Source: Hemileia vastatrix
Taxonomy: Eukaryota > Basidiomycota > Pucciniomycetes > Pucciniales > Zaghouaniaceae
Reading direction: 5' to 3'
Assembly (NCBI GenBank): GCA_030280995.1
Contig: JASXTE010000015.1
Span: forward strand, 23,594,501 to 23,658,500
Length of the DNA: 64,000 nucleotides
Shown here in pieces: positions 7,664 through 39,287 of this stretch. Positions within the stretch are counted from its first letter, which is position 1. Each line of letters begins with the position of its first letter. The notes beneath the pieces were generated by a model. That model saw nothing but the letters and a program-made list of their open reading frames with translations. It was not told the origin of the DNA and ran no database searches. Position numbers and translations under genes: made by a program.

Positions 7664-8057
7664 TGGGGGTATCAATGTATTAAATTAATTGTGGAAAATA
7701 ATCTGCATACCCCAATTATCTTCTGCAATTATTTTTGCTAATAATTAGCTTATTAGACACTTTAAGTGTCAATGTTCACCTCTTATCCAACATTTTTTTA
7801 CTCAATTTTTCATAACCACATCTTGGACAACTTTCTGTCATAACCACATCTTGACCTACATTCTGCCATAACCAAATCATGGATTACTCTCTGGATATGC
7901 CTTCTACCTTGCTGTGCACTCCCATTCTCATCCCATCCTGTTCATTCTATATGATCAGAACCCCTCACCATCTCATCTGCTTGTTTCTTCTCCTTTTCAT
8001 CTGGCTATCTCATATGCTTGTTTCTGCTCCTTTTCATCTTCATTTATATTTTAACAT

Positions 8058-9400
8058 GCCACATGTCCTAGATCTTCTCAAAGGCATCCATCACCCAGTT
8101 GTTCTTCAAATCCCACTACTCCCTCTTTCCCCCGCTCAGCCAAGAAATCTAAGACTGTTCAATTAAAAAAATGATCATCTCATTCTTATCAACTGGCTGA
8201 AAACCAAATCTAACTATGATTCTTGTTTTGGTACTGAGTATGTAACTAAAGTAGGACGGCCACCAGCATCAAAAGGTAATGGCTATCTTCTAATGGCAAA
8301 TGAATTATGGAATAAGGCCAAGGGAAGGATTGATCTTTTGCCTAAACAGATGTCTGAACGCTTCAAGCATTACCAAGCTAAATACAAGAAGGAAAAGGCT
8401 CTTTCATCTTCCACTGGTTTTGGGGTTACCGACATCAATATAACTAAGGGTATCAAATCCATAGACAATAAACTTGAATCTTTATGTCCTTAATTTAAAG
8501 AGATGGATGCAGTTTTTGGAGAGCCAGCCGATGTTAATCCTGTAAACTTGTTGGATGGAGAAGATACTATCTCCAAACATGATGTTGAAGTAAATCTTTT
8601 CCCATCCTCTACCTCCACTCAAGACTCCCCTCATTTGAATGAGACAAATATAGATAGCTTTTCTGTAGATCCTATTGGTGATTTAACCCAACCAAATCTA
8701 ACTCAGGTCTTTTTCTTTTTTCTTTTATCTTATCAATCCTATTTTCTATTTACTTATATTTATCTTATTTCTTAAAAGGCTGACAAACAAACCCACGATC
8801 CTTAATCAAATGAGTCTGAAGGTAGTGAAATTGATGAGGAAGAAAATATGACCTTGAACAAGAAGCTTAGGGCTTCAAGTAGTCTAAATTTCCACTCCTA
8901 AAGAAGACAAAAAAGTGATACTTCATCACAAACCCCTTTTTTGTCTATGGAACAATTTTTAGAGAAACACAATGCTGGTAAGTGATACCATACCTCTTAT
9001 TACTTTACTCTACTTTTCTTCTACTTTATATTAACTTTTACTATCACTCTAGAACAAGTGGAAATTTCTAAAGAGACTCTAAGCTTTGAAAAGAAGAAAT
9101 ACAAGCTCTCTTTAAGGAGGGATGATAGGCTACAAGATTTGGAAGAGAGGAAGTACGATCTCTATTTACGGAAGGATGATTAGGCACAAGATTTGGAGGA
9201 GAAGAATTTTGAGTTAAATCTAAGTATTGAAAAATTAAAAAGAGGAGAAAACACTTGAACATCAAAACCTATTAGAGTAGATGAAATATAAGTTTGATCA
9301 TGAATAAAATTCCAAAAAGAAAGATTTCTTGATAGAATGTGTTAAAGCTAATAAATCTGTTGAGGAAATTGAACGTTTAAATAAATTGTTGGATTACTAG
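8058..9400 (+). pseudogene. H2 Myb/SANT-like DNA-binding protein gene
   Basis: This is the accessory DNA-binding protein typical of PIF/Harbinger elements. After a Ser/Pro-rich start comes QLKK...HLILINWL, KSNYDSCFGTE, then KGNGYLLMANELWNKAKGRI and QMSERFKHYQAKYKKEKA (8290-8400), the trihelix/SANT-like core. TGFGV...KLESLCP..FKEMDAVFGEPADVNP follows. Introns are inferred at about 8707-8778 and 8977-9052 (donor gtaagtg, acceptor ctctag). The C-terminal charged coiled coil ends EEIERLNKLLDY at a TAG at 9400. Stops after the N-terminal segment, at 8491-8493 and in the last exons mark it as damaged. The DNA target is unknown. Confidence 0.7.
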
Positions 9401-9559
9401 TTTGTTTTATTTCTCTCACACTTCAACTGTTCATATTTATTTGTACATAAAATTTACAATAATTTCATGTATTTCATTACTCTATCAATCATTACTTGAT
9501 TTTTTGTATTTTAATGTTAAATATTATTTTTTTAAATAAAATTTTCATGTCTCCTTTGA

Positions 9560-9970
9560 AAATTTGACAATCCCCCACCCCTGGATTTTTTTGAATTAAG
9601 GGGTGGGTATCACCAATATTCTTTCATGTCATGAATCTTGAAAGTCTTATATGAAACTTTGGCTTTACTACCCCCTGCATTTTACTGGTATCCCCAAAAT
9701 TCTTACAAGTCAAGAATTTCACAAGTCTTATAAGAAATTTTGGCAATACCCCCCCCTGGATTTTATTGAAGTAAGGGACGGGTTTCACCAAAACATTTAC
9801 AAGTCAAAAATTTTACATGTTACATTTGAAAATTTGGCAATATCCCCCTACATTTTATTGAAGCAAGGGGTGAATATCACCAAAATTTTTACAAGTCTTC
9901 AATTTTGAATGTAGATTTGAAAATTTGGCAATACCCCCCCTGCATTTTATTGAAGTAAGGGGTGGAAGTC
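9560..9970. repeat. Hairpin-rich spacer minisatellite of H2
   Basis: Four to five units of about 95-105 bp, each with ggcaatacccccctg, attttattgaagtaagg, gggtatcaccaaaat and acaagtcaag blocks. Each unit holds a short C-run and G-run that can pair around attttattgaa. Related units lie between the same two genes in H1 (15480-15560), H3 (25060-25225) and near 52360-52440. It sits between the 3' ends of convergent genes, so it may work as a bidirectional terminator. Confidence 0.65.
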
Positions 9971-10264
9971 ATCTAAATTTAATATAATTACATAAATTAT
10001 TAAATAAATATCTAATATATATCAATTTCCCTAGTTTAAAGTAATGACAATTCCTCAAGCCAAAATGCAGATCAAATCTAGAAACAAAAGTTTGGGACTT
10101 TACATATGTATAGGCTAGAGGAACCCCATTAAACAAATAAATGTTATCATGATTACCTGTTATACAACCAAAGGTTGTTGGCTCATCACTTTAGTTGAGC
10201 AATTTGATATATAAAAAATATTTATAAAAATTTATGAAAAAATATAAAATTTTTGATGAAAACT

Positions 10265-11621
10265 CTAATCCCCATACTTTTTGGATCTAGATAAAGTTTT
10301 TTTAAATAAATTAACTTTACCTTGTTGATTCTTTGAATAAACTTATGACTGATTTGAAATGAGCAACCAAAATGTGTGAAATCTTGACAGGATTCCAAAC
10401 CAGGAGGATCTTTGGTCATTTGATGATTATCCTGAGAAGAATTCCAAATAGTTTTGATGATACCATTTCCCAAACCAAAATCAATGATGCGCTGGTGGTC
10501 TGGAAAATTTAAACCATGTCCTTTGATTTTAGCTGGAGATGGTATTGGTTGGCCAGTTATCGGATAGATATATGAGAATATACCAAAAGTAAGAAAATTG
10601 GTGTCATTCCTATCAATATGAATCCTATTGTGGAATCTAGAATGAGTGATAATAACATTAGAAAATAAAAGATATTTGTGGGTGATATCTTCCCATTTGG
10701 AGTCACTCCAATTCAGTATTCCAACTTTGGTTGCAAGTTCATGATTTTTTTCAAATGCTTTATTATAAAGCTCTTTGAGTCAAACAGCAAGAAAAGAGTT
10801 AAAGGAAGGTAGAGTGTCCAATAAGCAAAAATATTCATCTTTTTGAGCTTTAGTGATATTCTTGAGCAATGAATATATGCCTATATAATTGAAATAAGTG
10901 AAATGATATTAAGAGTGGAACAAAAATTATTATACATACCAAGAGAATATCCTTTAACAAAACCAGGTCTCCAACCAAATCCAATCATGATACCACCCAA
11001 CAAATTCGTATTCCTTATAGGTAACCAAACCAAAGCCATTTGATAAAGAGTTATGATAAGATCGGATAGTTTATTAAAAGATTCATCTTTTACACCATCA
11101 AATGAATGAACTTCCAAAATGAATTGAGCCTTATAAGTATTACTGATAACTGCAACAACTTGATCATCTCCAAATTTGGTTAGATATTTGATATCTTCTG
11201 GTAATTTATTCGGATATTGATTTTTTTTATCTACTTTAGTTTTATGAAAAAAAATGTTTGGAATATGATGAAAAAAACTTTCACAGAGAATTTTTTTTTC
11301 AGATATATTTTCTTCTGATGAGACTGATTATCTTTAATTTTTTTGATGATTTAGAGGATGATTTTTTTTTTCAGATATCTTTTCTTCTGATGAGAATGAT
11401 TATCTTTATTTTTTTTGATGATTCAGAAGAAGAATTTTTTTTATCAGATATCTTTTATTCTGATGAGACTGATTATCATTAATTTTTTTTGATGATTTAG
11501 AAGATGATTGTATTGAAGTTGATTTTGAAGAAGATGATAGAGATGATAAAGATGAAGATGATAAAGAGGATAAAGATGAAGATGATAGAGAAGTAAGGGG
11601 TGAATCTGAAGAAGAAGACAT
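10265..11621 (-). pseudogene. H2 TET/JBP-like 2OG-Fe(II) oxygenase gene
   Basis: Read on minus, after a Ser-rich low-complexity start (11406-11621), the conserved part begins YPNKLPEDIKYLTKFGDDQ near 11220 and continues to GFGWRPGFVKGYSLG. An intron (donor gtatgta, about 10881-10939) precedes GIYSLLKNITKAQKDEYF. The core has WSDSKWEDITHKYLLFSN, then HIDRND (HxD iron ligands), LTFGIFSYI, GHGLNFPDHQRIIDFGLG and THFGCSFQIS, whose His fits the distal ligand. A second intron (about 10287-10320) precedes a short last exon ending RSKKYGD. This matches the fungal Tet-like 2OG-Fe(II) oxygenase family (Pfam type from memory, unverified), which oxidises modified bases in characterised relatives. One stop (FLAV*LKEL) and frame breaks in the repeat-rich N-terminus disable this copy. 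Confidence 0.7.
11285..11520. repeat. Tandem ~72-bp repeats in the TET-like N-terminus
   Basis: Three units containing tcagatatcttttcttctg, atgagaatgattatc and ttttttgatgattta follow one another. On the minus strand they encode Ser/Asn/Lys-rich sequence of the low-complexity N-terminal tail. Copy-number or indel changes here explain why the tail is out of frame with the oxygenase domain. Confidence 0.65.
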
Positions 11622-11639
11622 TTTTTTGATCTGAAAAAA

Positions 11640-12110
11640 ATTTAATTGTCAAAAAAAAATTCACAACATTTTTTTTTTAAAAAAACTCATGTAATAATAT
11701 CTTTTAAAATAAAATTTAAAGCAAAGTCCTTTTAAAAAATTAAAAAAAAAATTTTAAAACAAAAAAAATATATAATAATTTTCAGTAAAAATTATTTCAA
11801 AAAAAAATACAAAAGAAAACCTGAAGTTTGGTTATAAAAAACCTTCACAGATAATTCTGACAAAATAATTTTAAAAAAATTTAAAAATTAAAAAAAAAAA
11901 TAGTAAAAGAAAAATCAAAACAAATGAATTAAAAAAAATTAAATTCAGTAAAATTATTGGGAAAAAAATTAAAAATTAAAATCTAAACCTTTTTTGTTTT
12001 GTAATTTACAGGGAAAGACTTTAACAGAATGTAAAAGATTATTTTTTTTCTAAAATTCTGCCAAAAAAAAAAATTACAAAAAACCAATTTTTAGTATGTT
12101 TTTTAGAAAG
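11640..12110. other. A-rich non-coding segment of H2
   Basis: Runs of A and AAAT with no ORF. It is upstream of the TET-like gene (minus orientation) and so contains its presumed leader or promoter, but no specific signal can be picked out. Confidence 0.4.
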
Positions 12111-12114
12111 TAGG

Positions 12115-12740
12115 TAACCCCGCTTTAACTCACATAAAAGTCCCCTTTCAACCCCCTTTATTTCTCTGAAATCCCCTATAATATCCTTCCCTCCTTGCCT
12201 CAAAATCCCCCTCAAATCCCCTCCTTGCCTGCCTCAAAATCCCCCTGAAACCCCTTCCTTAATTGCCTCAAAACCCCCAAAAATCCCCCCCTTCACCCCT
12301 CTTTAGATGTCCCAACCCCCCCCCCTCTTTAGCCACCTCAAAGGTCCCCGCTTCCACTCCTCTTAAGCCACCTCTAGCCCCTCCTTCTTTCTAACAAACG
12401 ATTGTTAGCAATCTTTTGTTAAGAAGGAGGGGGGGTAGAAGCAGGTTAAGGGGAGGGGACCTAAAAGGCAGGGAAGGGGGAATTTGAGGCGGCTAAAGAG
12501 AAGAGAAGGGGGGAGGGTTGAGGCACCTAAAGGGAAGGGGGTGTCATCAGGCGCCTAAAGAGAGGGGAAGGGGGGCAATGAGGCACCTAAAGAGGGGGGA
12601 AAGGGAGGATTCGGGACAGGTGAAGAGGGTGAAATAAGGGGGACTTGAGGAAGGTAAAGAGAGGGGAGAAGGAGTGACTTGAGGCAGGTAAAGAGAGAGG
12701 AAAAGGGGTGAAATGAGGCAGCTAAAGAGGGTCAAGGAGA
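12115..12740. repeat. Large C-rich / G-rich inverted repeat
   Basis: The left arm (12115-12398) is pyrimidine-rich with repeated tgcctcaaaatccccc, and the right arm (12405-12740) is purine-rich with repeated gaggcrgctaaagagaggg units of roughly 45-50 bp. The arms are imperfect reverse complements. The best-paired core is ctccttctttctaacaaa with ttttgttaagaaggag around a short loop (12381-12431). It lies between the TET-like and DDE genes of H2 and could form a cruciform or triplex. Confidence 0.7.
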
Positions 12741-12816
12741 GAAAAAAAAAGAAAAAAAAAAGAGAAAAAAGAGAAAAAAAAAATTAGTCTAACCTTGAAA
12801 ATAAAAAAAGGACTTA

Positions 12817-12856
<40 letters not shown>

Positions 12857-12950
12857 AACAAAAATAAACAAAAAAAAGCAAAAATAAAAAAATTCATGAT
12901 TAGCAAATAAAAAACATGAAAAAAGTAAAAAAAAGACTTACCTGGTGAGA
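12741..12950. repeat. Poly(A)-rich low-complexity tract
   Basis: It includes an uninterrupted A run of more than 40 bases near 12811-12853, followed by aaaataaac repeats. No coding content is seen. Confidence 0.8.
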
Positions 12951-13210
12951 TGAGTTAAGAAAATAAAAGTAACCAAAATATTTGAGTGATGTTTGAGGAG
13001 AGGATGAAAAGGATATGAGTGATGAATGAAAAAAAAATCACTGACAAAATATGCGATTTCATGTTGAGCTGGTGAAAGAAAACCAATGAGCCATCCAAAA
13101 AAAGATATTCACCGTAAATTCTAAAAAAAATGAATATGCAACAAACCAAAATACCAAAACAAGTGAATAAAGTACAGAAAGAGGACATTTGGAGAGTACC
13201 AAAAAACAAT

Positions 13211-14440
13211 TTAAAAGGGTGGTGAAGAGAAATGTTGGAGAGTAATAGGCATAATGACAGAGTGTATGCTGGTCGAATGAATGTTTTGTGATTCAAGGGA
13301 GGGGAGAGCCTGTGCTGGTTCAAGATCCTCTTTTTCATAAAGATTATTCCACTTATCCTTTAAATCAGCTAGGATAGTGTGGAGTATAATGCAAGTCATG
13401 ATCCAATGATTTGCAGTTTTGATCTCCAATTTTTTTTGAAATTGGATTCTGAGCTCCCAAAGACTAGAAAATCTTCCCTTTAAAATATCTATAGCATGTT
13501 CAATTTGTACTCTTGATTGGGCAAGGTGATAATTAAAGGCAGTTTTGGGGTCACTTTCTAAACTTTCACCACGGAAAGCAGGTATAATGTACTTTCCACT
13601 TGCATATGTTGAGTCTGAAAGGAGTTACTGAGATTCTTCAAAGTATGAATCAGGGGTTTGAGAAATCCTCATTCTTTGGAAGACGGAAGAGTCATGACAT
13701 GAGCCAGGGAAGCCACTATGAAAAGCAATAACTTTTTTATTGACATTGCATACAAGTTGAATGGTAATAGAGTATCTAGAAAGAAGATAAAAAGTTAGAT
13801 TATGAAGGATGAGAAATTGGAGAAGATTTTGAAGAAAAATTTTTTTGCAATCAAAATAATGGTTGCCATGATGAGCAGGCTTTCGACTCAAAGGTATAGT
13901 TGTGCCATCAACAAATCCTACACAGCCAGGGAAAACTTCAGCTTGCATTACTTGAGAAGATTCATGTTGCTGCTCTGGAGTTGGCCAAGCAAGTGTTTGA
14001 GACTTGAGGGAAAGGATAGAAATTATACAGCGCTTGGTGTATAATATCACAGTACCATATCCTATGTTAAAGAGATTATCCAAATGTCTTAAAGAAGCAC
14101 CGTTTCTATTTGAGCCAAAGCAACATAGTGCAACAGCAAGTTGGATGGCAGAATTACGCTGTTTTTTATGGGAATTGTTATGAAAGATAGGATGATTGGA
14201 GATGAGTTGATAAAGTTTGAAAAAAGATTGGGAGAAGTTCTAAAAAGTTGGGTGAAGTTTAAATGAGGAATGTTGAGAATGGAGGCCAGATCATTCGGGG
14301 ATCATGATAAAGACTTGGCCCCCTGGTGATGATGTAACACTTTTTTGAAAGAAAACACATATAAGCTAAAGCATCTTCCAAATCAGAGTCAGATTTTTAG
14401 TAAAGAACTAAAATAAAAGTAATAGCATTCATTGTTGAGT
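13211..14440 (-). pseudogene. H2 PIF/Harbinger DDE nuclease (DDE_Tnp_4-like)
   Basis: The transposase catalyses excision and integration. On minus, a degraded N-terminus (14440-14090; acidic run, LEDALAYMCFLSKK, frameshift) leads into LDNLFNIGYGTVILYTKRC (14083). Then come FPGCVGFVDGTTIPLSRKP with the first Asp, an old intron (13777-13850, acceptor ttctttctag, donor lost), and FHSGFPGSCHDSSVFQRM with the second Asp. A single stop (ESQ*LLSD at 13625) follows, then SGKYIIPAFRGE and VQIEHAIDILKGRFSSLWEL, the usual IEHA.G.LK.RF region with the third acidic residue. The C-terminus ends at 13211. Most of the catalytic core is readable, so decay is recent. Confidence 0.8.
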
Positions 14441-14723
14441 GAAGTAGCTTCCTAGTAGAGAGGTGTTTCATTGTTTCTGGTGGAAGGGTTATGTGATGAG
14501 GGAAGTGGGAATTCACCGCCAAATGTGCAGTTGGGGTGTGTAGATAGAAAAAAACTTAAGTGTTTTCCACCAAAATTAAGTAGCATAGAGTGAGGAAAGA
14601 CTTAAGGATGGCATCAGCAATTATGAATCATGTGACTTTATTGCAAATCCATAATGGATGAGATGAGTTTGGGATCAGGAATTAGGAATGAAAATTTGGG
14701 TATAAGAGGCGGGATAATGCATT

Positions 14724-14779
14724 ATTGTGGATTCCTTATCCACTAGCCCCGGGGCTAGTGGATAAGAATCTTCCACAAT
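14724..14779. repeat. Perfect 32-bp palindrome within a 56-bp imperfect one
   Basis: Positions 14735-14766 are an exact palindrome with arms CTTATCCACTAGCCCC and GGGGCTAGTGGATAAG. Outer arms attgtgga (14724) and tccacaat (14779) extend it. It lies about 80-100 bp from the H2 right TIR, and a diverged copy lies at the same place in H1. Confidence 0.9.
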
Positions 14780-14850
14780 TAATAATGTCTGATCCCGGGA
14801 AAAAAAATTCCTGATCCCTAATTGTGGATCCCTGAACATTGATACCCCCT

Positions 14851-15600: not shown

Positions 15601-15607
15601 CAAAAAT

Positions 15608-23540: not shown

Positions 23541-23836
23541 AGGGGGTGTCAGTTCTGGAAAATCCTCACTTAAATTTGACCAAGTCCGTACTTATTTAAG
23601 TGCAGATTTCCAAAACACACTAGCCCCAACACTGGTGGATTTCAAAATGAAATAAGTCACTTATTTCACTCAAATCCGCACTTTCTCAACCAAAAGTGCT
23701 GATTTCACCATCAAGTCCCATTTCACTGATTTGTCAGCATCATTCCAATCATACACAGCACTCCGCAGCATAACACTTCATAACTCAAAACATCGTACAT
23801 CATTTACATTTTCATATCATATCATATAAGAGTCAT

Positions 23837-24470
23837 GCTTTCCTCACTTTCAAATTGTGATAAATTACATATAGCAATGACTTTCATGGCTCTTGAACTG
23901 CTCTTGGACTCTGATTGCAATTCTGATTCTGATCTAGAAGAAGATTTTGTCTTTTTATCAAAAATGGCCATGAAAGGTTACCTTCTTCCCAGAAAGCCTC
24001 AAGTACACCATCCAAACACTTCTTAACCTATCTACACACAGTTTTAGAAAGTTGTTCAGGACTTCTCCGGAATATTTCCTTAAAGTTCATGAGCTTATTC
24101 AGGACCATCCCATATTTCACAATAATTCTCAAAAAGAACAACAACATCCTTCAATTCAATTGGCCATCACAGTATGTTGTTTGGGTTCCAATGGTAATGG
24201 AGCCACTTTGAAACGTTTAGAAAATGTATTTGATTTAGGGTATAGTTCAGTTAACACTTATACCAAAAGATGCATCACTTCCATAGACTCCTTGGAATCT
24301 CAACTTCTCACCTGGCCAACAAAAGAAGAGCAACTTGAATAATCTCATGTTAAGCAAGCAGAAGGCTTCCCAGAATGTATTGGTTTTGTTGACAGTACTA
24401 CTATTCCTTTGAGCCAGAAACCTGCTCAAGGTGGAAACAATTACTTTGACCGTAAAAAGAGTTAGATTAT
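23837..24470 (+). pseudogene. H3 DDE nuclease, N-terminal part
   Basis: It begins near the ATG MLSSLSNCDKLHIAMTF and passes an acidic run (DSDCNSDSDLEED), FLSKMAMKGYLLPRKPQ, then LLRNIFLKVHELIQDHPIFH (frame change), AITVCCLGSNGNGATLKRLE, SSVNTYTKRCITSIDSLESQ, a stop, and FPECIGFVDSTTIPLSQKP with the first catalytic Asp. The next intron keeps its acceptor (tctttatag at 24527), but only about 10 bases of the following exon remain before TET-like sequence. The catalytic core after the first Asp is missing. Confidence 0.75.
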
Positions 24471-24527
24471 TTTTAACTCCTTTCATTCTATTTTAAACTA
24501 ACACAAACAACTGTATCTTCTTTATAG

Positions 24528-24770
24528 ATATTCAATGATTTTGGATTAGGAAATGGAATCATCAAAACAGTTTGGAATTCTTCTTAAAATAATCACCAAA
24601 CCACAAAGTCTCCTCCAGGTTTGGAATCTTGTCAAGACTTCACACATTTTGGTTGCTCTTTCAAGATCAGTCAAAAGTTAATCCAACAAATAAACAAGTT
24701 AAAAAAGGAAGAAAAATGTAATAAATTTAAAAATTCTTTAGGTAGATCTAAAAAGTATGGGGATTCATAG
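24528..24770 (+). pseudogene. H3 TET-like oxygenase, C-terminal remnant fused to DDE exon
   Basis: Directly after the DDE-derived acceptor the sequence becomes FGLGNGIIKTVWNSS, a stop, NNHQTTKSPPGLESCQ and THFGCSFKISQK, then an intron-like stretch (acceptor attctttag) and RSKKYGDS at a TAG (24770). It aligns closely with the H2 TET-like C-terminus, including the distal His. The HxD-containing part is deleted. Confidence 0.75.
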
Positions 24771-25367
24771 AGTCACCAAATATTTAATATTCTTCCATAA
24801 ATTTTTAATAAATAAATCTGATATGTCATTTTACTAAACTAAAGTAATGAGACAATGACCTTGGGTTGTAAAAAAGGTAATCATGACAACATTAATTTGT
24901 TTCATGGGGTTCCTCTAGCCTATACCTGTGGAAAAACCCAAAATTAGTTTCTAGACTTGATCTGCATCTTGGCATGAGGAATGGTCATTACTTTAAAAGT
25001 AGTATATTTGACATATATTATTTATATATTAATTAATTTATGTAATTATATTAAATTTTGGTAACTTTCACCCTTTACTTCAATAAAATGCAGGGTAGGG
25101 TATTGCCAAATTTTTAAATCTGAAATGTGAAATTGATGACTTAAAAAAATTTGGTGGTACCCACCCCTTGTTTCAATAAAATTCAAGGGGAGGTATTGCC
25201 AAATTTTCAAAAGAGATATAGAGTTTTAATGACTTAGAAGTATTTAGATAAGCAAACTTATTGACTTGAAAGTAAAGATAGAAAAATTGTATTATATTCT
25301 CAAATTTTTGTTAAAAAAAAGTATAAACAAACTTATTGACTTGAATGTAAAGATAGAAAAACTGTAT
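24771..25367. repeat. H3 spacer between TET-like and Myb-like genes, left of gypsy C
   Basis: It contains two spacer units (ggtattgccaaattt at about 25100 and 25190, with ttcaataaaat stems) like those in H2. Then a 40-50 bp block aacttattgacttgaa.gtaaagatagaaaaa is repeated at about 25256 and 25330. Gypsy C is inserted at 25368-25372 (gatat). Confidence 0.6.
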
Positions 25368-25372
25368 GATAT

Positions 25373-26182
25373 TGTCATGTGCCACATGACACTCGAGGCA
25401 AAAGCAGCTCATTAAATCAATAATACAGAGGTCTAAATCCATACTCGAAGCGCAGAAAGCAATTCTACATAGAAACTGTGACTTTCCTTTGTGTACTCAC
25501 TATTCAACTGCGCTAGTCTAAACTCTAAATCTAAATTAGTTAATCTCTCAATAGTGTGTCTCAGTATTTTCCTCAATAAGCGACGCACAGCGCAATAGTC
25601 AATTTAATAGTACGCTCAAAGGTTTATTAAATGTCTGTGAATTATTAAAAGGGGTAGTGAGCATGGACAGAATGTTTAGTGGAGGATTATAGGGTTGACG
25701 GATGTTAGTGAGGAGGGTCCGGGTGTAACAGGTGTATTTTTTAATGGTCTCTGGTGTGCGGAATAGTGGATGGGTATGAGGTCAATGTGAGGAGGAGTAA
25801 AGCATATAAAAGGGGTTGGGTTTTTGGTTTGACATTCTTTAGAACTAAATTATAAAGCGTATACATAGTTAATAATGGTAAAGCTTTAAGTTAAATCATT
25901 ATAATTGTATCTTTCCTTATTTTGTCAGTAATCATTTCTAAATCCTAAATCTTTGATTATTGAGTTTCCAACGCTCCGTGAGATTTTAAGAATTTTAATA
26001 ATACCTTTAAATTATATTAGACTTCTTCTTGGACATATCTCGAAGCAGTAGCTCTTCCTTTGAGTCATCTTCAAATCACTTCCTCAAACATTTCCTCTGT
26101 GCATTGAAGAAGTTTCTAAACTCCTCCCTCCATCTCACTTCCAGGAACACTCTCAACCTTGTGTGTAGGTCGTCCAGTGACA
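25373..26182 (+). repeat. 5' LTR of gypsy C
   Basis: The first 19 bases are a perfect inverted repeat, TGTCATGTG and CACATGACA around one base. A TATA-like tataaaag lies at 25805-25812 and is kept in the 3' LTR at 33348-33355. The LTR ends gtccagtgaca at 26182. No TGG primer-binding start follows at once. Confidence 0.9.
25805..25812 (+). promoter_or_regulatory. Putative TATA box, gypsy C LTR
   Basis: tataaaag, conserved in both C LTRs in the sequence gcatataaaaggggttggg, probably directing transcription from within the LTR. Confidence 0.5.
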
Positions 26183-26257
26183 GTATAATTTAATTCTCCG
26201 TAGTTCCCATTCTTTGCACTACTATGTTCCTTTTCAGGTGTTTTCTAAATTCTTAAA

Positions 26258-29200
26258 ATGGAACCTGTTCAACACACTCCTCCTACGGGCGCTACTACTA
26301 GAGCTTGCGCCAGAGGCAGGCCAACAGCTACATGGCCTGTTTCCCGCACTCACTCCTTGGAACCTCTCGAACTTAGGGAACGGGGACACTCCGTCCAATC
26401 TGTAGAAGACATACCCCAGGATTTTGATGATTCTAGTGAGGAAGAAGAAGGAGAGGATACAATGCATGAGGCACCATCCGCCCCTGCTACTCACCCTTCT
26501 GGTCAACCTTCGGAACCTGGACCATCTAATTCTCTGGAGGACTTCATGAGACTTTTCATGAAAACCCTCTTTAATTCAACGTCTTTGGAGGGATCTAAAT
26601 TCAAAACTCCTTCCATGAAATCTCCTGATAAATTTGATGGAGAACATCCAGACAGATTGCGGCCCTTTTTGAAAACCTGCAAGTTCCTGTTCCATAATGA
26701 CCCTCAAACCTTCAATAATGACCGATCGAAGGTTGTTTAGGCTTCTTCATTCCTAGCCAGAAAATCAGAAAGATGATTCGAGCCTTATCTTCTCATGCTC
26801 TTTTCAACAGAAACCCACTTACTTATGAATAACTGGGAAAATTTTGAAGACCAACTCTTCACGTTGTTTGGTGACTCTAATGAGACTGACAATGCAGAAA
26901 TCAAACTTGATTTTCTTCGCATGAGTGATAATGGGAAAGCCTCTGAATATATTTTCAACTTCAGAGCACTTCAAACTCAAGTAGGTTGGAATGATGCTGC
27001 CCTTAAGTATCATTTCAAAAAAGGACTTCCTTCAAGGATTCTGGATCAATTAAATCTTCACGGTCAGAAGATTACTACTTTAATGGATTTAATGGATTGA
27101 ACCCTCAAACTCAACGGCTTTACCAAGGACGACTACAACATTGTTGATACGCTAACAAATCTCAAGGCACAAATTTTAAATTGGGACCTTCTTCACACCC
27201 ATGGACAACTCAATCCAAACCCAATAAGGGAAAGGACAAACCTCAACCTAAAAGCTCGACCCCAGGTGATATCAGCAAAGTACTGGATCATAAAGGGGAA
27301 CTTAAAGAAGCTGAGAGGAAGAGACGAGCAGATAATGGGTTATGCATGTATTGTGGGGGTAAGCACAAACTAGAAGATTGTGTGAAGTTGAAGGAATGAG
27401 AAGGTACTAGTTCGAAGTCAAAAAACTAGTATATAGTTTACTTGTGTGCAAAGCAAACTATCCTATCTCTCCCAGTGCACAGAACCTCCATGTCTTAAGG
27501 ACTGGAGTTGCCTTAAACTGCTTGAGATTCATTCTTTCAAGGAGGACACCCCCTTCAGTTGTCTTATAGACTCTGGAGCTTCAATTTCTTTTTTCAGTTT
27601 ATTTTTTTCCGAGAAGCTAAAGCTGACATTCATAGATATCAATGAAACTCCAATATATTTGGTCAAATCAGAGGAACCCAAATATTGGGTAAGTAAGAAA
27701 GTTTTATGGGTTTTCAACTTTCCGAACTCTCCCCCCTTCGAGTGGCAATTGTAAGTCTTGGACGCCCCAAGAATGGACGATACCATCGTTGGCCATGACT
27801 TTTTACCACATTGGAATCCTGAAATTGATTGGTCAGGGGGATTGATCACCCCATGCACTAAGTATATTTTTAATTCTTCAATGCAGGTCAATAGGGAGTT
27901 AAACAACCCACCTGACAATGTCCTGCTAGAGGACAAATCTCTGCCAGATGACTTTCAAGCATCTTATCTTTCTCTAAATGAGCAATTGGCTAACTCTTCT
28001 AGCTTGATCACTTCACTCAAAGAGGATTTGAATTGCCTCGAAGTAGTTGAATTATGCTCTCTCAATTCGGGTCTTCCCTCAACAGACTCTCTCAAAGATG
28101 ATGAGGACAACCAAATCAATGTTGAAGCCATTAAATTAACTCTACCAGAAATCTATCATGATTTACTCAATGTTTTCTCAATCCGCAAGGCCAATAAGTA
28201 ACAACCTCATTGACCCTACAACCATCAAATAGAGTTAATAGGTCCAGTACCTCCGGCAGGTCCTGTCTATTCTTTGTCGAAGGACGAATCTCAAGTTCTT
28301 CAAGACTAACTTGCAGAGAATTTAGCCAAAGGTTTCATCAGAGCCAGTAAATCTCCAACCGGCTCCCCTTTTCTTTTTGTAAAGAAAAAAGACGGTAGCC
28401 TCAGGTTGTGTGTTGACTATAGAAATCTCAACACAGTTACAAAGAAGAATGCATATCCAGTTCCTCCTAGATCATTGCTTCTAACCCTTTTTAATGGTGC
28501 TAATTTCTTTTCTAAAATTGATCTTGGAGGCACTTATAATCTTATTTGCATTGCGGAAGGTCATGAACCACTGACTGCATTGCGCACTAGATTTGGTAGT
28601 TTTGAATATTTAGTTATGGCTTTTGGATTGTGTAACGCACCATCCACTTTTCAAACCTTTGTCAATGACATCTTTCAAGATGTTGTTGAACAATTTGTTG
28701 TTGTCTATTTAGATGATATTTTAATTATCTAGAAGACACTGGATGGACATATCCATCATGTTCAACAGGTTCTAAATCGACTTTGAGATCACAGTCTCTA
28801 CACCAAGCACAATAGATGCAAATTCCATCTTAAATCAATCGATTTTTTGGGTTTTACGTTATCTACTGATGGTTTAGTCATGTAAAACAAAAAGATCCAA
28901 AAAGTCCTGGAATGGCCTGAGCCCAAAACCGTTAAATCCCTCCAAGGATTTTTGGGTTTTGCAAATTTCTATAGAAGATTTATTAAAGATTACTTTAAAA
29001 TTATTTCCAATCTTACTTCTCTTCTTAGAAAAGATATTCCTTTTGTTTTTACTTCTAAAGCACAAAAGGAATTCAAAGAATTGAAGACTTTGTTCACCAC
29101 AGCTCCAATTCTTCAACACTTTGATCCTTCTGCTTTGACAATAGTTGAGATGGATGCGAGCGATTATGCTATCACAGGGGCCATTTCTCAATTAAATCCT

Positions 29201-31059
29201 GAAACAAAATTGTTTCATCCTGTTGCTTTTGATTCACGCAAACTCATTGCAGCAGAATTAAATTATGAAATTCATGACAAAGAGCTTTTAGCTATTATCC
29301 ATTGTCTTAAAAAATGGCGCTCTTTTCTTCTCATCCTACATAGTCTTTTTCAAATTCTAACTGATCATAATGCTTTGAAATACTTTATGTCTTCCAAAGT
29401 GTTAACCAGGCGTCAAGCCAGGTGGGCTGAATTTTTATCTGAATTTCCTTTTTCTATTTCCTATTGCCCAGGTAAGAACTGCATTGTCCCAGATATCTTG
29501 TCACGTCGGGACAATGTTTACCCACAGTGGGGGGACACATTTGCTGACAAGAACCTAGAAAATGTGAAATAAATTTTCAACGAATCAATGTTAACAACTC
29601 ATCAACTTAATTTGATGACAATTCAATTTTTTCGAAATCCACTATCCAACATCCTCAAAGCTCAGTCTAAGGACAATTATTGTTTAGGGTTTAAAGACAA
29701 AATACTCTCGAAGCAAGGGGCCAAAAGATTTAGTATTGAATCAGGTCTATTAGTTTTTGAAGGTAGAGTAGTCATACCCGACAACAATGAAATAAAATTA
29801 TGGAATTTCAATAGTCAACATGATTCTCCATTAGCTGGTCATTTTGGGGTTGATAAAACCTACCAGTTAATAGCGAGGGATTTCTTCTGGCCAGGAATTA
29901 CCAGAGAAATCAAGGCCTATATAAGAGCTTGATACAAATGTAATAGGAATAAGGCTCCCCATCAACGGAAGCATGGGTTGCTTCAACCGCTTCCTATTCC
30001 CTCTAAACCTTCGGAATCTTTATCAATGGATTTCATTTCTCAACTTCCTCTTTCTAATAATTTTGATGCTATATTAGTAATAGTAGAAAGATTTTCAAAG
30101 ATGTCTATTTTCATTAAAACCACTACTACTGCTACAGCAGAAGATTTTTCAAAATTGTTTCTAGAATATGTTTTTTCCAAACATGGCTTACCCAGTGATT
30201 TTATTTCAGATAGAGGCTCATTGTTTGTATCCACATTCTGGACTCAACTGTGTCGATAACTCAATATCACAAGGAATCTCTCCACGGCCTATCATCCTGA
30301 AACTGATGGGCAAACCAAAAGGGTCAATCAAATCCTCAAACAATACCTTTGAATGTATGTCAGTTAACAACAAGACTATTGGACCACATGGTTACCGTTG
30401 GTCAAATTTGCTTATAATAACTTGACAATCTCCTTTCGAAACTGTTTATGGAAGACATCTTCAATTCAACTCAATCCACGTTGGAACTAGTCATCCTGCT
30501 GAACATTTTCTTCGAACCATATCACGACTCCAAGAGGAACTTAAATCAAATTTGGAATTAGCAATTCAAAGTTACAAGGAACAGGCCGACAAACATCAAC
30601 AATCTGCTCCTTCTTTTAAACCAGGTGACAAAGTATGGCTCAAAGCAAGAAACATTTGAACAACTCAACCATCAAAGAAACTGGCTGAAAAACACTTGGG
30701 ACCATTTGAAATTGACTCTGAAGTCTCTAAAACTGCATTTTGACTCAAGCTACCTCCTAAATGGCAGGCTATTCACCCTGTTTTCCACATATCTCTCCTG
30801 GAACTGGCTCAAGAAACATACCCGGGAAGGAACCAACCTCCTCCGGAACCGGTCGAAGTAGAAGACCATCTAGAGTGGGAAGTAAGCTGTATCCTTGATT
30901 CAAGAATGCGCAAGGGGAAACTTCAATACCTCGTGGAATGGGAAGGCTTCCTCGATGACTCAGACAAAACATCCTGGGAACCAGCCATCAATGTTTCTAA
31001 CACCCCTGAACTCCTAAAATCTTTTCATTTTAAATATCCTTTAAAACCAAAACCTTAGA
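26258..31059 (+). pseudogene. Gypsy C gag-pol (chromovirus), many stops
   Basis: Gag starts MEPVQHTPPTGATTRACAR (26258), then FKTPSMKSPDKFDGEHPDRL, NNWENFEDQLFTLFGDSNET, FKKGLPSRILDQLN and a zinc knuckle CMYCGGKHKLEDC (27350). Pol: protease CLIDSGASISFF (27560), RT with [20 protein letters not shown] (28400) and [10 protein letters not shown] (28700), RNase H EMDASDYAITGAISQ (29150), integrase AGHFGVDKTYQL, SMDFISQLPLS, DFISDRGSLFVSTFW and [15 protein letters not shown] (29840-30310). A chromodomain YLVEWEGFLDDSDKTSWEP follows, ending at TAG 31059. At least ten stops or frameshifts, densest in the integrase C-terminal part, make it inactive. Confidence 0.88.
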
Positions 31060-31839
31060 ACTCTCTTTTATTTTTTCTCTTCTTTTTCTTTTCTCTTTTT
31101 CTTTTCTTAAAATTCTAAAACTTCTTCTCTTCTAAAATCCTCATTCTTTGTTTTCTTTTCTTCTTTCTTCTTTTTTCTTTCAAAAGTTTTCAACCTTCTT
31201 TAAAATAAATAAAATTAAAAAAAAATAAAAAAAAATAAAAAAATAAAAAAAATTAAATAATAAAATTAAAATCTTAAAAAATCAATAAATTAATTTAAAT
31301 TTTATTTTCTCTTTTCAAACTTTTTCTTCAAACTATCAAAGTTTTTCATGAACTCAACACGACAATCTTTCTTGAATTTCACTTCAACCTCTAAATCTCT
31401 CTTTTAAAATTTCCTCAAACAAATTACTTCTTTCTTTCAAATTCTTTTTAAAATTTATTTCTTCTCTTCTGTTTCTTCTTTCTTTTCAAATAACCAACAT
31501 TTCTCAAAACTTCAATAAATAAACTTTCACAAATAACAATTTTTTTTCTTTCATTAAATTTTCATTTCAAACAAAATTATTTCAATCAATTATTTTTTTT
31601 TCTTACTTAAATTTTTCTTTCAAATTTTAAACTAAAATTCCTTCAATTAAATATTCTTTCTTTTCTTTCAATCTTTTTCTTTCTTCTTTTTTTCTTTTTC
31701 TCTCAAAATCTTATAAAATAAATATTAAAATTTTAATTAAAACAACAAAATAAAAATAAATAAAAATAAAATTGTTTCTACTTTTCTTTTCCTTTTTTCC
31801 TTCCACTTTAAATTTTCTCCTTTATTTTCTCTCAAACCA
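31060..31839. other. Pyrimidine-rich non-coding interior of gypsy C
   Basis: Long ttcttttctttt runs and AT-rich DNA between the end of pol and the antisense gene. No credible ORF; the frame at 31772-32092 (+) is a shadow of the antisense gene. It could be the 3' UTR shared by pol and the antisense transcript. Confidence 0.5.
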
Positions 31840-32819
31840 ATCCCTTCATCTTCTCCAAAATCACCCTTATTTCCTTCCTACATTTCTCAAAAACCTCTCC
31901 CACTCCTACCAGTACCACTTCCCTGATCTCAAGAAATTCTTCAGCCATGTCAAAGGAGGACACATCAATAATCTTGTCGATATTGCCACTGAACTCTTCA
32001 ATAAACCTAGCTTGTCAACCCTGGAGAGGTTTTTTTGCCCATACCTGGTCAAGAGTTTCTTCATTATCCTCCCTCAAGGCAATCACTGGTAAATGTTCTT
32101 CAGTTGGAATCGATGGCGCCACTTCCACAACGGCCACTTCCACAGCAGTGGTTTCCACCATAGGAGCTCCCACACTCAAGGTTTCCACCATAAGGGCTTC
32201 TGCGATGACATCTAAATTCTAAAATATACGGTCATCAGTAAAATTTTTTTTCTTTGGAAAAAAAAAATTAAAATAAAATAAAATAAAACCAAACTTACTT
32301 CGAACATTGGATCAGCCTCTAGAAATAACTTTGATGTGACTTCCACCACCACCTCTTCTTCTTCTTTGTCATCTTTGATGACCATCCGCCTTAAGATGGG
32401 GACTTCCTCCTCATCTTCCTTCACCAATTCATCCACCTCCTCTTCTACCCTTCGTTTTTACCCATGGCTTGGGTCACCATGGTGTCCTTGACTTCCTCCT
32501 CAACTACTTCTGATTGATCATACCCGATCAACACATCCCATATATCTTTGACCACTTCTTTGGTCTTTGGTATTACCCAATATTTGGTCTCTGTAAACCT
32601 TTGTTTGATGTCAGAGTTTTTTGCTAAAGCATCACACGCCACCCGTCTCCATCGGCAAAACTCACATTTCTGGTGAGGACCTCGAGTAGCTGTGCTTTCA
32701 ACACAGAAGTATTCCATTGTTTCACAAGCCGTGCATTCTTGGGAGTACTGTCAAGTAACGAGCCCACCATCCGCTTTGAGGTGGGGAGGCGTGGGAGCTG
32801 GAGTTGGACAAGCTGACAT
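31840..32819 (-). pseudogene. Antisense Cys-rich, acidic protein gene inside gypsy C
   Basis: Minus-strand exon 1 (32819-32299) starts MSACPTPAPTPPHLKADGG and, after one stop, reads CTACETMEYFCVES, then GPHQKCEFCRWRRVACDALA, a CxxC...C...CxxCx6C zinc-binding-like pattern. An acidic segment VIPKTKEVVKDIWDVLIGYD..EEEVKD follows. A one-base frameshift precedes VDELVKEDEEEVPILRR. An intron with donor gtaagtttgg and acceptor attttag (32298-32219) joins in phase to exon 2 (NLDVIAEALMVETLSVG.. to LDQVWAKKPLQG, then a stop; an open frame continues to about 31840). The intron and protein-like composition argue for a real gene carried antisense. No family was recognised and its function is unknown. This copy is damaged. 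Confidence 0.5.
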
Positions 32820-32915
32820 AATAATAATAATAAACAAGAATTAAATAAAGGGAAAATAGTGTGGGAAGTATATGTCTCACGCTCAATGGAGCTCACGTTT
32901 TTATACCTGGGCATC

Positions 32916-33725
32916 TGTCACGTGCTATGTGACACTTGAGGCAAAAGAAGCTCATTAAATCAACAATACAGAGGTTGAAATCCATACTCAAAGCACAGAA
33001 AGCAATTATACGTAGCAACTGCGACTTTCCTTTGTGTACTCACTATTCAACCGCGCTAGTCTAAACTCTAAATCTAAATTAGTCAATCTCTCAATAGTGT
33101 GTCTCATTCTTTTCCTCAATAAGCGACGCACAGCGCAATAGTCAATGTAATAGTACGCTAAAAGGTTTATTAAATTTATGTGAATTATTAAAAGGTGTAG
33201 TGAGCATGGACGGAATGTTTAGTGGAGGATTAAAGGGTTGACGGATGTTAGTGAGGAGGGTCCGGGTGTAACAGGTGTATTTTTTAATGGTCTCTGGTGT
33301 GCGGAATAGTGGATGGGTATGAGGTCAATGTGAGGAGGAGTAAAGCATATAAAAGGGGTTGGGTTTTTGGTTTGACATTCTTTAGAACTAAATTATAAAA
33401 CGTATATATAGTTAATAGTGGTAAAGCTTTAAGTTAAATCATTATTATTGTATCTTTTCTTATTTTCTCAGTAATCATTTCTAAATCCTAAATCTTTGAT
33501 TATTGAGTTTCCAACCCTTTGTGAGATTTTTAGAATTTTAATATTACCTTTAAATTATATTAGACTTCTTCTTGAACATATCTCGAAGCAGAAGCTCTTC
33601 CTTTGAGTCATCTTTGAATCACTTCCTTGAACATTTCCTCTGTGCATTGAAGAAGTTTCTAAACTCCTCCCTCCATCTCACTTCCAGGAACACTCTCAAC
33701 CTTGTGCATAGGTTGTCCAGTGACA
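32916..33725 (+). repeat. 3' LTR of gypsy C
   Basis: 810 bp, same length as the 5' LTR. The opening palindrome is decayed here (TGTCACGTGCTATGTGACA). It ends gtccagtgaca before the duplication gatat (33726-33730). Confidence 0.9.
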
Positions 33726-33847
33726 GATATTTTTGAAAATTTGTCAAAAAAAAAGTACTATATTCAAGACCTTTTATAAGTCAGCATATAAGAAAATATT
33801 ACCAAAAAGAAATCAAACAAAATTAATTTAACTAGAAAAAAAATTCA

Positions 33848-35145
33848 TTAATTGAAAAGGTCAAGCAATTTTTTAATTTCCTCATAAGATTGGCCATTTT
33901 TTACACATTCCATAAAGAAATCTTTTTTTTAAAAAATTTCTTGTTTTTCCAATTCACAAGTAGCCATTTCTCTTTGAAATTGACGGTCATTTACTCTTTC
34001 CATCTTCTCTGCCTCAAATTTTTTTTCTTCCAAATCTAAGACTTGCTGATCTTTCCTTAGAATATGATCAAACTTCATCTTCTCAAAGTCAAGGGCATTT
34101 TTTGCAATACAGCTTTTCTATACAAAAAGAGAAATGAGAAAAATAAGTTAATGTATAAAATATATAGTAAACAAATCTTACTTATATCTTTTTTTTTTAA
34201 ATATTCCTCAAGGGAGCCAATTGAGCTTGTTGAAGTATTACCATGTTTTAAAAGATGGTTCAAGTTCATTGAAGTTGAGGCTCTTTTCTTTAGTTTGGAG
34301 CTTGAACAAGAGGATTCAGGAAGTTTGTCTAAAGCAGCTTCTAAAGCGGGATTCACATTACCAGAATCGAGATTATTTAATAGAGTTTGAGTTTGAGTAG
34401 GAGGAGACTAGAAAGAAAGAGAAATTTAGAGAAGAATTGAAGAAAAAAGAAAAAGTAAACATACATTTAAATTTTGGGGCTTTGAGGATTCAGATCTGCT
34501 GCAATATAATTGTTCTGCTTGATAGTCGGGATCATCTTCAGCTGAACTCTGGTTAAAAGATGGAAGGGATTTTTCCTGTTGATGTACAGGTATTTCAGGA
34601 TTAGTTGATGGTTGAGATCCAGAGGGTATATCCTTAGTAGTATTGTGTAGAAACCAAGGGTTTACATCAACTTGGGAGCCAAAAAGATTATCCATTTCCT
34701 CATAGAAAGGACATATGACATTGAGCTTTTTGGAAACGGTAGTAATTCCAATCTCCAAATCATCATCATCAATACCAAAGCCAGTTTCATTTGCAGCATG
34801 AAAAGCCTTTTTATATTTTGATTTATAGCTCTTAAATCTCTCCTTCATTTGTTTAGGATTGAAATTGATTCTCCCCCTTGTTTTCTTCCTTACTTCATTG
34901 GCCATCCATAAGTATCCATTAAACTTTGAAGAAGGTGGACATCTAATACGAGTAGACTGTTCACATCCAAAAAATGAATCATAATTTGATTTTATTTTAA
35001 GGAAGTTGATTATGATGAGATAATCATCCTTTTTTAGCTGACCTGACTTTGATTTTTCAGGTGTGGGGCTTGTTTTACAAGGAGACATTTGTGATGAAAC
35101 AGATTTTTGAGTTACCTTTTGAGATTTGGAATGTCTGAGAGGCAT
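33848..35145 (-). pseudogene. H3 Myb/SANT-like DNA-binding protein gene, nearly intact
   Basis: Exon 1 from MPLRHSKSQKVTQKSVSSQM (35145) carries QLKKDDYLIIINFLKIKSNY, GYLWMANEVRKKTRGRI, QMKERFKSYKSKYKKAFHAA, TGFGIDDDDLEIGITTVSKK and CPFYEEMDNLFGSQVDVNPW (trihelix/SANT-like), ending about 34464 at donor gtatgttt. Exon 2 (after ctctctttctag, to about 34190) has SPPTQTQTLLNNLDSG and KLKKRASTSMNLNHLLKHG. The last exon (to 33848) is a charged coiled coil, LDFEKMKFDHILRKDQQ to SYEEIKKLLDLFN. Only one in-frame stop (QEIF*KKD) was seen. In Harbinger elements such a protein brings the nuclease to the ends. It converges on the spacer, as in H1 and H2. Confidence 0.75.
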
Positions 35146-35513
35146 TATAAAACTGGTACATAACAAGAAAAGAGATTAAGAGGTAGAAGAAATAAGTAAA
35201 AAAGAATGTAAACATGCCTGGTCAAAATGTTGTAATAGAATGTTGAAAATGTTAGGAAGAGGTGTGTGCCAAAGATTGATGGGTAGGGAGCAAGGAAGGT
35301 CAGTGTGTCACATGTGACAGGGATGGGGTAAGAAAGGAAGGGATGTTGTGGCCAACATGTGGTTGTGAAAAAAAACAGGAAAAAAGTGCTGATTTGAGGT
35401 CATAACTGACACCCTTTTTTGAAATAAGTAACTTTTTTGCAAAATTTAAGTGCTGGTTTGGTTTGAAATCTGAACTTAAGTTAAGTGCTGATTTGCCAGA
35501 ACTGACACCCCCT

Positions 35514-38454: not shown

Positions 38455-38655
38455 GGGGGTATCAACGTTAGAAATCTTCAATTTCAAAATACCTCTTCTT
38501 TCCCCCACATCAACCATAATGATTTTTTAAAATATGCCATGTTGTGTCCCCAAAACAGATTTTTAATGAGAATTGATGTCAAGTTTTTTGCTCTCTTTTT
38601 GCATTGCAAAATACCTTTTTAATAATTACAAACTTCTAACTTTGATACCCCCTAA
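38455..38655. mobile_element. MITE with GGGGGTATCAA ends
   Basis: About 200 bp between agggggtatcaacgttagaa and the inverted ttctaactttgataccccct. The ends resemble the Harbinger-like H family TIRs (AGGGGGTRTCA), so it may be mobilised by the same nuclease. No coding content. Confidence 0.7.
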
Positions 38656-39104
38656 TAGGTGATTTTAATTGTGATAGTGAAATCTGGGGACTAATTTTAA
38701 AGTTATTAATGAAATTAGTGCATATAATAAGGTCAATTTACTAATAATTAAATTAGTGCATGTGTTAATAATGAAACTATGAACATGGGATGAATTCACG
38801 CAGCATGAGGCCATTACACAGAAGTCATTTTGAGCATAAGAAAATCTCAGTTTTAAAAGTTTTATTTGTATAAATTTAAGTAGACAAATCAATAGTTCTA
38901 AATAAGACAAATTGATATGAAAAAGCACAATTTTAATATTATAAAATTTTTAGTAGATATATTCAACTTTAAGTGATTTACAGCACATTTTTTTGTTATT
39001 TCACTATAATAATGAAAATAACAGCTTTAAGTCCACTTAAAAATTATTTAACCTTATTTCTAAGGCTTTTAAGATTGCCTTTACATATACCAACTTACTA
39101 TTAG

Positions 39105-39287
39105 GGGGTGTCAAAGTTAGAAGTCTTTAATTTTTAAAAGATATACCACAACCTTGACATTAATTATCATAAAAATAGTGTTTTAGGTGTAAGATATGCC
39201 TTATATGAAAAAAATAATCATGTCTTATTTGGTGGAAAAAATAGAGATTTTTAAATGGTAGATTTCTAACTTTGATACCCCCTATTA
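39105..39287. mobile_element. MITE with GGGGGTGTCAA ends and visible empty site
   Basis: About 183 bp between AGGGGGTGTCAAAGTTAGAA and the inverted TTCTAACTTTGATACCCCCT, with ATT on both sides. The family F copy at the window start has the uninterrupted acttaatattaagtac (about 265-280), showing the empty site. The 3-bp duplication agrees with H1 and H3. Confidence 0.78.

What the first reader, a model, noticed from the sequence alone, without database searches (positions are those of the whole stretch)
7664..14850. Harbinger-like transposon carrying a TET/JBP-like oxygenase as a third gene
H2 has inverted AGGGGGTATCA-type ends and three genes: a PIF-type DDE nuclease, a Myb/SANT-like protein (both normal for Harbinger) and a TET-like 2OG-Fe(II) oxygenase with HxD and distal His. 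H1 and H3 keep the same order and orientation, so the oxygenase is part of the family, not a chance insertion. TET/JBP genes have been linked to fungal KDZ transposons; a stable link to a PIF/Harbinger element is, to my knowledge, little described. Inference: the element may edit modified bases on its own DNA to escape silencing or to control excision.
Basis: partly seen in the sequence, partly recalled or inferred. Interest (0 to 1): 0.88.

Follow-up and report, generated by a model that had tools for sequence, protein, structure and literature searches.

The report
TET-carrying Harbinger transposon in rust
A cut-and-paste DNA transposon of a rust-like fungus carries, besides its own jumping enzyme and a probable DNA-binding partner, a gene related to the TET enzymes that oxidise methylated DNA; this kind of element was described in print in 2025, and here the TET gene appears to be an exchangeable and dispensable part.

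Summary
The core observation holds. Window 7665-14849 is a PIF/Harbinger-type transposon with GGGGGTATCAATGT ends, a DDE_Tnp_4 transposase, a Tet-like 2OG-Fe(II) oxygenase (PF20515) and a third gene whose best Pfam match is Myb/SANT-like, below cut-off. All three genes of H2 contain stops. The flanking H1 and H3 are the halves of one older three-gene element (5732-17253) whose TET gene H2 interrupts. A third copy lies at 23543-35511. In the host genome (748 Mb, unnamed, rust-like), 14 copies sampled by their transposase gave 8 with all three genes in order, 2 with both ends but no TET, and 4 with the far end out of range. TA target duplications and gene set match TET+ Harbinger 'PHISTA', published in December 2025 (PMC12730594), so the link itself is known. 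Additions here: a probably Myb/SANT-like third protein; a TET slot that is replaced and lost; strong constraint on TET between families (dN/dS about 0.05, dS saturated); heavy TCG-biased C>T decay of copies, which suggests methylation. Anti-silencing in trans is the likeliest role, but the two TET-less copies are the least mutated of the sample, so TET is not needed in cis.

The parts
7665..14849 (-). H2: TET+ Harbinger (PHISTA-type) element, transposase end on the right; nested inside the older element
   Evidence: TIRs; alignment to the outer element; Pfam
7665..7678 (+). H2 terminal inverted repeat, third-gene end (GGGGGTATCAATGT)
14836..14849 (-). H2 terminal inverted repeat, transposase end (GGGGGTATCAATGT)
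13211..14239 (-). H2 PIF/Harbinger DDE transposase (two pieces, in-frame stop between)
   Evidence: DDE_Tnp_4; named relatives mostly in rusts (Puccinia striiformis, Austropuccinia psidii, Phakopsora), one in a Thalictrum assembly
10225..11327 (-). H2 Tet-like 2OG-Fe(II) oxygenase; likely N-terminal exon about 10884-11327 (no Pfam match of its own), catalytic exon 10225-10779 with an in-frame stop just upstream of 10779
   Evidence: PF20515 E 1.3e-18; relatives; stop seen in the tblastn alignment; exon 10884-11327 inferred
8167..9400 (+). H2 third gene: Myb/SANT-like domain 8167-8490, then linker and coiled-coil-like part near 9040-9400; broken by stops
   Evidence: PF13837 sub-threshold; homologous open frames in L039
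9540..9990 (.). tandem units of about 90 bases between the TET and third genes
   Evidence: self-BLAST; seen
23543..35511 (+). third copy, family B (TIR GGGGGTGTCAGTTCTGG), remnants of all three genes: transposase 24076-24543 +, TET 24537-24807 +, Myb/SANT-like 34708-35031 -; TA at both ends
25373..33733 (.). probable LTR retrotransposon nested in the third copy (direct repeats 25373-26191 and 32916-33733, 94% identical; coding content not examined)
38455..39282 (.). two short TIR-only elements (38455-38652, 39104-39282) with the same type of ends and TA on both sides
53100..53905 (+). truncated transposase end of a family-B element

Best explanation
The finding is a TET-carrying Harbinger element of the PHISTA kind: a rust-fungus cut-and-paste transposon with TA target duplications, a PIF-type DDE transposase, a Tet-like dioxygenase in the same orientation downstream of it, and a convergent third gene whose product probably binds the ends through a Myb/SANT-like domain. 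Shown: the gene order, the ends, the TA duplications, the high copy number, the constraint on the TET protein between families, and CpG/TCG-biased C>T decay of the copies. Inferred: the host methylates CpG in the copies, the TET enzyme oxidises that 5mC, and this lowers silencing or deamination of the family; because copies with no TET or with a lost metal ligand also exist with intact ends, the enzyme works in trans for the whole population of elements. The slot between transposase and third gene is a place where TET genes are replaced and lost. My estimate is about 0.85 for the identification and 0.5 for the anti-silencing role.
For: Identity: Pfam hits, TA on both sides in 7 of 9 copies with both ends whose flanks were printed, and the published description of TET+ Harbinger with TA duplications from six rust species. 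Stable link: remnants in order in the three long window copies; 8 of 14 transposase-anchored genome copies; 25 of 29 TET-anchored 3.5-kb loci, H2 itself left out, run on into the third gene (my reading of the listing), and the two of these extended to 10 kb hold all three genes (L031 = L002, L032 = L006). Function of TET: between-family dN/dS about 0.05 against 0.14 for the third domain and 0.135 for the N-terminal transposase part (dS saturated; the C-terminal transposase part gave no value); within family A 0.37 against 0.43-0.52; 32 of 38 distinct family-A TET copies stop-free over 155 codons and 27 of 38 keep H-x-D and distal H. Substrate: C>T at CpG 265 of 1220 cells against 207 of 11901 elsewhere, TCG highest at 146 of 417.
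Against: Two copies with both ends, L039 and L050, lack TET, keep the other two genes, and are the least mutated of the 14 sampled. 9 of 38 family-A TET copies have Asn in place of the Asp of H-x-D, and 2 more have lost another ligand. TET+ copies show no lower CpG decay than TET-less ones (14 loci, ages differ). H2's own flanks are CT and TG rather than TA. No activity, transcript or 5mC/5hmC data were available.
Confidence: 0.7

Rival explanations
1. TET is a passenger: captured once, carried because the elements multiply, with no present benefit to the transposon.
For: TET-less copies with both ends are young (L039 and L050 are 99.55% identical over 3.57 kb) and the least mutated of 14; family-B copies with transposase and third gene but no TET between them also occur (second elements of L045 and L046, one end seen in each); Asn for the metal-binding Asp in 9 of 38.
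Against: Between families A and B TET has the lowest dN/dS of the three stretches computed (about 0.05), which a passenger would not keep; it is present in 8 of the 10 sampled copies in which both other genes were seen.
Confidence: 0.25
2. A Harbinger lineage of the Nuwa or canonical type (3-bp duplications, Myb/SANT partner) captured TET independently of PHISTA.
For: The third protein's best Pfam families are Myb/SANT-like, whereas PMC12730594 says that no PHISTA third protein has such a domain; H2 is flanked by CTG on both sides if the end is read as GGGG.
Against: TA on both sides in 7 of 9 copies with both ends (the other two, L034 and L042, have it on one side), in the outer element and in two short elements.
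Confidence: 0.12
3. The oxygenase belongs to a separate element with its own ends, nested by chance in H1-H3.
For: The TET region has a different history from the rest of the element in the outer copy, and a distant TET-like gene lies downstream of the transposase in L038.
Against: Same slot and orientation in families A and B and in 8 of 14 sampled copies. No inverted ends or target duplications were noticed around TET in the alignments; no dedicated search for them was made.
Confidence: 0.03

Closest known systems
PHISTA (TET+ Harbinger, Kojima 2025, PMC12730594)
   Same: Rust hosts, Harbinger-type DDE transposase, TET/JBP gene, a third gene, TA target duplications; TET+ and TET- families side by side; TET genes exchanged between transposons
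   Different: The third protein here is probably Myb/SANT-like, which the paper says PHISTA third proteins lack; replacement and loss of TET are seen here inside one Harbinger family. The host was not identified, so whether it is one of the paper's six species is unknown
Nuwa and canonical PIF/Harbinger elements
   Same: Harbinger-type transposase plus a probable Myb/SANT-like partner gene
   Different: Extra TET gene; TA instead of 3-bp duplications (comparison as described in PMC12730594, section 3.1.4)
KDZ elements with TET/JBP genes (Kyakuja, Dileera, Zisupton)
   Same: DNA transposons of Basidiomycota that carry a TET/JBP gene
   Different: Different transposase superfamily; as summarised in PMC12730594; the 2014 original was not read
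CcTET of Coprinopsis cinerea
   Same: Fungal Tet-like dioxygenase linked to transposons, active on 5mC (as reported in PMC12730594)
   Different: AG type, not the rust (PU) type; no PDB chain matched the H2 catalytic exon meaningfully by sequence

Membership tests
PIF/Harbinger superfamily | DDE_Tnp_4-type transposase | tested here: met
   H2 pieces E 1.2e-9 and 2.6e-7 above cut-off; 454-aa open frame in L039 E 6.7e-26
PIF/Harbinger superfamily | Short inverted ends and 2- or 3-bp target duplication | tested here: met
   GGGGGTATCAATGT ends; TA on both sides in 7 of 9 copies with both ends
PIF/Harbinger superfamily | Myb/SANT partner protein (Nuwa and other lineages) | tested here: inconclusive
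   PF13837 matched by 11 of 14 copies at E up to 1, best 1.3e-4; the scores printed (15.2, 19, 17 and 15.3 bits) are below the cut-off of 27; fold model too weak (mean pLDDT 45.8); no PDB match
PHISTA | TA target duplication | tested here: met
   7 of 9; outer element and two short elements; not met at H2 itself (CT/TG)
PHISTA | TET/JBP gene inside the element | tested here: met
   not in every copy (L039, L050)
PHISTA | Third protein without Myb/SANT domain | tested here: inconclusive
   sub-threshold Myb/SANT-like matches; could be the same protein undetected in the paper
PHISTA | Transposase groups with PHISTA in a tree | not testable with these tools
TET/JBP dioxygenases | Tet-like 2OG-Fe(II) oxygenase domain | tested here: met
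   PF20515 68.3 bits against cut-off 27
TET/JBP dioxygenases | H-x-D and distal H metal ligands | tested here: met
   present in H2; HxD..H in 27 of 38 distinct family-A copies, HxN in 9, other loss in 2
TET/JBP dioxygenases | Double-stranded beta-helix fold | tested here: inconclusive
   AlphaFold2 model with mean pLDDT 44.2, not usable, so no fold search was run
TET/JBP dioxygenases | Oxidation of 5mC in DNA | not testable with these tools
   needs biochemistry

The most novel reading that the evidence does not exclude
The TET slot is an exchangeable anti-silencing cassette. Element families share one trans-acting pool of TET enzymes, swap TET lineages into the same slot by recombination, and shed the gene when others supply it, so that young TET-less and ligand-less copies live off TET+ relatives.
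Probability: 0.3. Interest if true: 0.72.

Novelty: new member of a known kind. Interest (0 to 1): 0.45.

Why it matters
It supports, in a chromosome-scale genome, that TET genes ride in Harbinger elements at high copy number. It also offers a natural comparison that I did not see in the parts of the published survey that I read: TET+, TET-less and ligand-less copies of one family, with both ends, in one genome, all exposed to CpG/TCG decay. That would make the anti-silencing idea testable with methylation maps alone.

Tried and rejected
Structure models of the third-gene domain (2 sequences) and of the TET domain (6 sequences) were too weak, so no fold search was run. The one search left for the third protein found 1 candidate and none at the threshold. 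PDB searches gave no useful match. A 3-bp CTG duplication for H2 was considered and set aside because TA is found on both sides of 7 of 9 copies with both ends. I first read the H2-E4 similarity of TET as a recent swap. Third positions between families A and B are nearly saturated in TET too (0.459 against 0.566 and 0.539), so much of that similarity can be constraint, and I keep the exchange claim for the outer copy only. A protective effect of TET on CpG decay was looked for and not seen.
Full report
What is there. H2 (7665-14849) has 14-bp inverted ends GGGGGTATCAATGT and three genes. Reading from the transposase end: a DDE_Tnp_4 transposase on the minus strand (13211-14239, two same-frame pieces with a stop between), a Tet-like 2OG-Fe(II) oxygenase on the minus strand (PF20515, E 1.3e-18, 10225-10779, with a likely further exon near 10884-11327 that has no Pfam match of its own), and a convergent third gene on the plus strand from about 8167. 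All three genes of H2 contain in-frame stops, so this copy is dead.

Correction of the layout. H1 and H3 are not separate elements. 5732-7660 aligns piece by piece and in order to H2 from its transposase end down to H2 position 10575 (about 1 kb of the transposase is missing), and 14853-17205 takes up at H2 position 10572 and runs to the third-gene end. H2 therefore landed inside the TET gene of an older relative spanning 5732-17253, which has remnants of the same three genes in the same order and TA at both outer ends. A third copy, of a related family B with ends GGGGGTGTCAGTTCTGG, spans 23543-35511, again transposase, TET and a convergent third gene, and is split by a probable LTR retrotransposon at 25373-33733 (direct repeats only examined). 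So the three long copies in the window all carry TET remnants in the same slot.

Genome-wide check. The window lies in a 747.6-Mb assembly of 791 contigs. The named database relatives of the TET piece are Puccinia proteins (2 of 5 hits named); those of the transposase piece are from Puccinia, Austropuccinia psidii and Phakopsora, with one from a plant (Thalictrum) assembly. First-look candidates number 17310 for TET, 14443 for the transposase and 11681 for the third domain, of which 150 each were scored and listed. These are loose counts, but the family is clearly large. 139 of the 150 listed transposase places have no stop in the matched stretch (my count). To avoid choosing by TET, I fetched 14 copies by their transposase, picked down the list (stretches reach 7.0 kb past the match in 8 and 6.4 kb in 6). 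The list holds the best matches to H2, so this sample leans to intact family-A copies. All three genes in order: 8 of 14 (L033, L034, L037, L040, L047, L048, L051, L052; both ends in view in the first four and L048). Both ends, transposase and third gene but no TET: 2 of 14 (L039, L050). Far end not reached: 4 of 14 (L035, L036 with the N-terminal TET part, L038 with a different TET-like gene in the expected direction, L049). Six family-B loci fetched by the third gene gave two with all three genes (L041, L042), one with TET 7 kb away and no transposase in range (L044), one internally deleted without TET (L043) and two holding copies with transposase and third gene but no TET between them (second elements of L045 and L046, one end seen in each). 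A seventh, chosen because positions suggested it, has all three (L053). Of nine copies with both ends whose flanks I printed, seven have TA on both sides; L034 and L042 have it on one.

The TET slot changes. In the outer element the third-gene half is close to H2 and the TET part is not: of 711 aligned columns of the third-gene half, H2 agrees with the outer copy against E4 (the third window copy) in 222 and with E4 against the outer copy in 47, while in 601 columns of the TET 3' half and flank the numbers are 43 and 182. Third codon positions say the same: family A against the outer copy differs at 0.229 in the third gene but 0.570 in TET. Decay of an old copy would affect both alike, so the outer copy has a TET of another lineage in the same slot. 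Between families A and B third positions are near saturation in all genes (0.459 TET, 0.566 third gene, 0.539 transposase), so their TET similarity (82% aa over codons 72-155) can largely be constraint; I do not claim a recent A-B swap, although sequence downstream of the catalytic exon is also 75-90% alike in the 100-base bins of L053. TET-less L039 and L050 are a recent pair, 99.55% identical over 3.57 kb, with tandem repeats in the slot; by eye, an ORF of L039's slot recurs in L046.

Selection and decay. Nei-Gojobori dN/dS between families is about 0.054 for TET, 0.141 for the third domain and 0.135 for the N-terminal transposase part; the C-terminal part gave no value (dS near 2 and so rough). 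Within family A the ratios are 0.37, 0.50, 0.43 and 0.52 (TET, third domain, N- and C-terminal transposase), weak constraint as expected for many dying copies. The rows include three duplicates (L001 = H2, L031 = L002, L032 = L006). In 38 distinct family-A TET copies (30 found by TET similarity, H2 among them, and 8 by transposase), 32 have no stop over 155 codons and 27 keep H-x-D and distal H; nine have Asn for the Asp. Taking the majority base as the older one, copies change by C>T at CpG in 265 of 1220 column-sequence cells against 207 of 11901 at other C, and most at TCG (146 of 417) (four gene stretches with 38, 11, 14 and 21 copies). PMC12730594 cites TCG hypermutation in Pucciniomycotina, so this fits a known, methylation-linked process. 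It suggests, but does not show, that the elements carry 5mC.

Mechanism. Shown: ends, genes, order, TA duplication, constraint, CpG decay. Inferred: transposase cuts and pastes, helped by the third protein binding the ends; the TET enzyme oxidises 5mC on the family's DNA and relieves silencing or decay. Against a need in cis: TET-less copies L039 and L050 have the fewest CpG>TpG changes in the transposase (2 of 36 and 0 of 36) and the fewest other changes, and TET+ copies are not better protected (ages differ, 14 loci). A trans-acting enzyme, or a passenger, would both fit that; the constraint favours the first.

Third protein. The domain at 8167-8490 and its relatives match Myb_DNA-bind_4 in 11 of 14 scanned copies at E up to 1, best 1.3e-4, and Myb_DNA-bind_3 in 3 (A2 holds only part of the copies). 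The scores printed (15 to 19 bits) are below the cut-off of 27. A coiled-coil-like open frame follows in L039 (by eye). Four predicted helices are compatible but the model is unreliable. So 'Myb/SANT-like' is likely, not proven.

What is known. I read the abstract, section 3.1, section 3.4 and the first part of section 4 of PMC12730594 and passages elsewhere in it. It describes fifteen TET+ Harbinger families with TA duplications from six rust species, including Austropuccinia psidii, names the lineage PHISTA, reports TET- relatives, frequent TET transfer between superfamilies, a third protein without Myb/SANT domain, and proposes escape from silencing. [quoted passage not shown] In the listings shown by searches I saw no other paper on TET in Harbinger elements; listings were capped, only titles and abstract starts were seen, and subscription journals are not covered.

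Noticed in passing
window 42388-48597 and 53908-63473: Chromodomain retroelement frames (Ty3/gypsy type by inference): a 2069-aa open frame with RT, RNase H, integrase and chromodomain, and a 253-aa frame at 58734-59492 with chromodomain and Tf2-1-like SH3; 57437-58618 and 62292-63473 are 99.7% identical direct repeats. Observed only.
   Followed up: partly
L038:1538-2143 (-): A second, distant Tet-like oxygenase (PF20515 E 1.2e-16, about 23-26% identical to rust TET relatives) in the same direction 4.4 kb downstream of a family-A transposase; slot content or nested element not settled.
   Followed up: partly
family-A TET copies L002, L003, L007, L010, L014, L023, L027, L037, L047; family-B L042, L044: The Asp of the H-x-D metal motif is Asn in these copies; they are scattered over a TET tree with mostly weak nodes.
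   Followed up: partly
window 9540-9990 and the same region in most of L001-L030: About 90-base tandem units between TET and the third gene contain stretches reminiscent of the element's own ends, by eye; possible internal transposase-binding sites.
   Followed up: no
L039 slot; L046:1758-2667: A tandem-repeat open frame in the TET slot of a TET-less family-A copy recurs, by eye, in a family-B stretch without TET.
   Followed up: no
L004, L005, L011, L012, L015, L019, L020, L026, L030: A short form lacks homology to the H2 stretch 12698-10966 including the N-terminal TET part, so that the catalytic TET exon lies close to the transposase.
   Followed up: no
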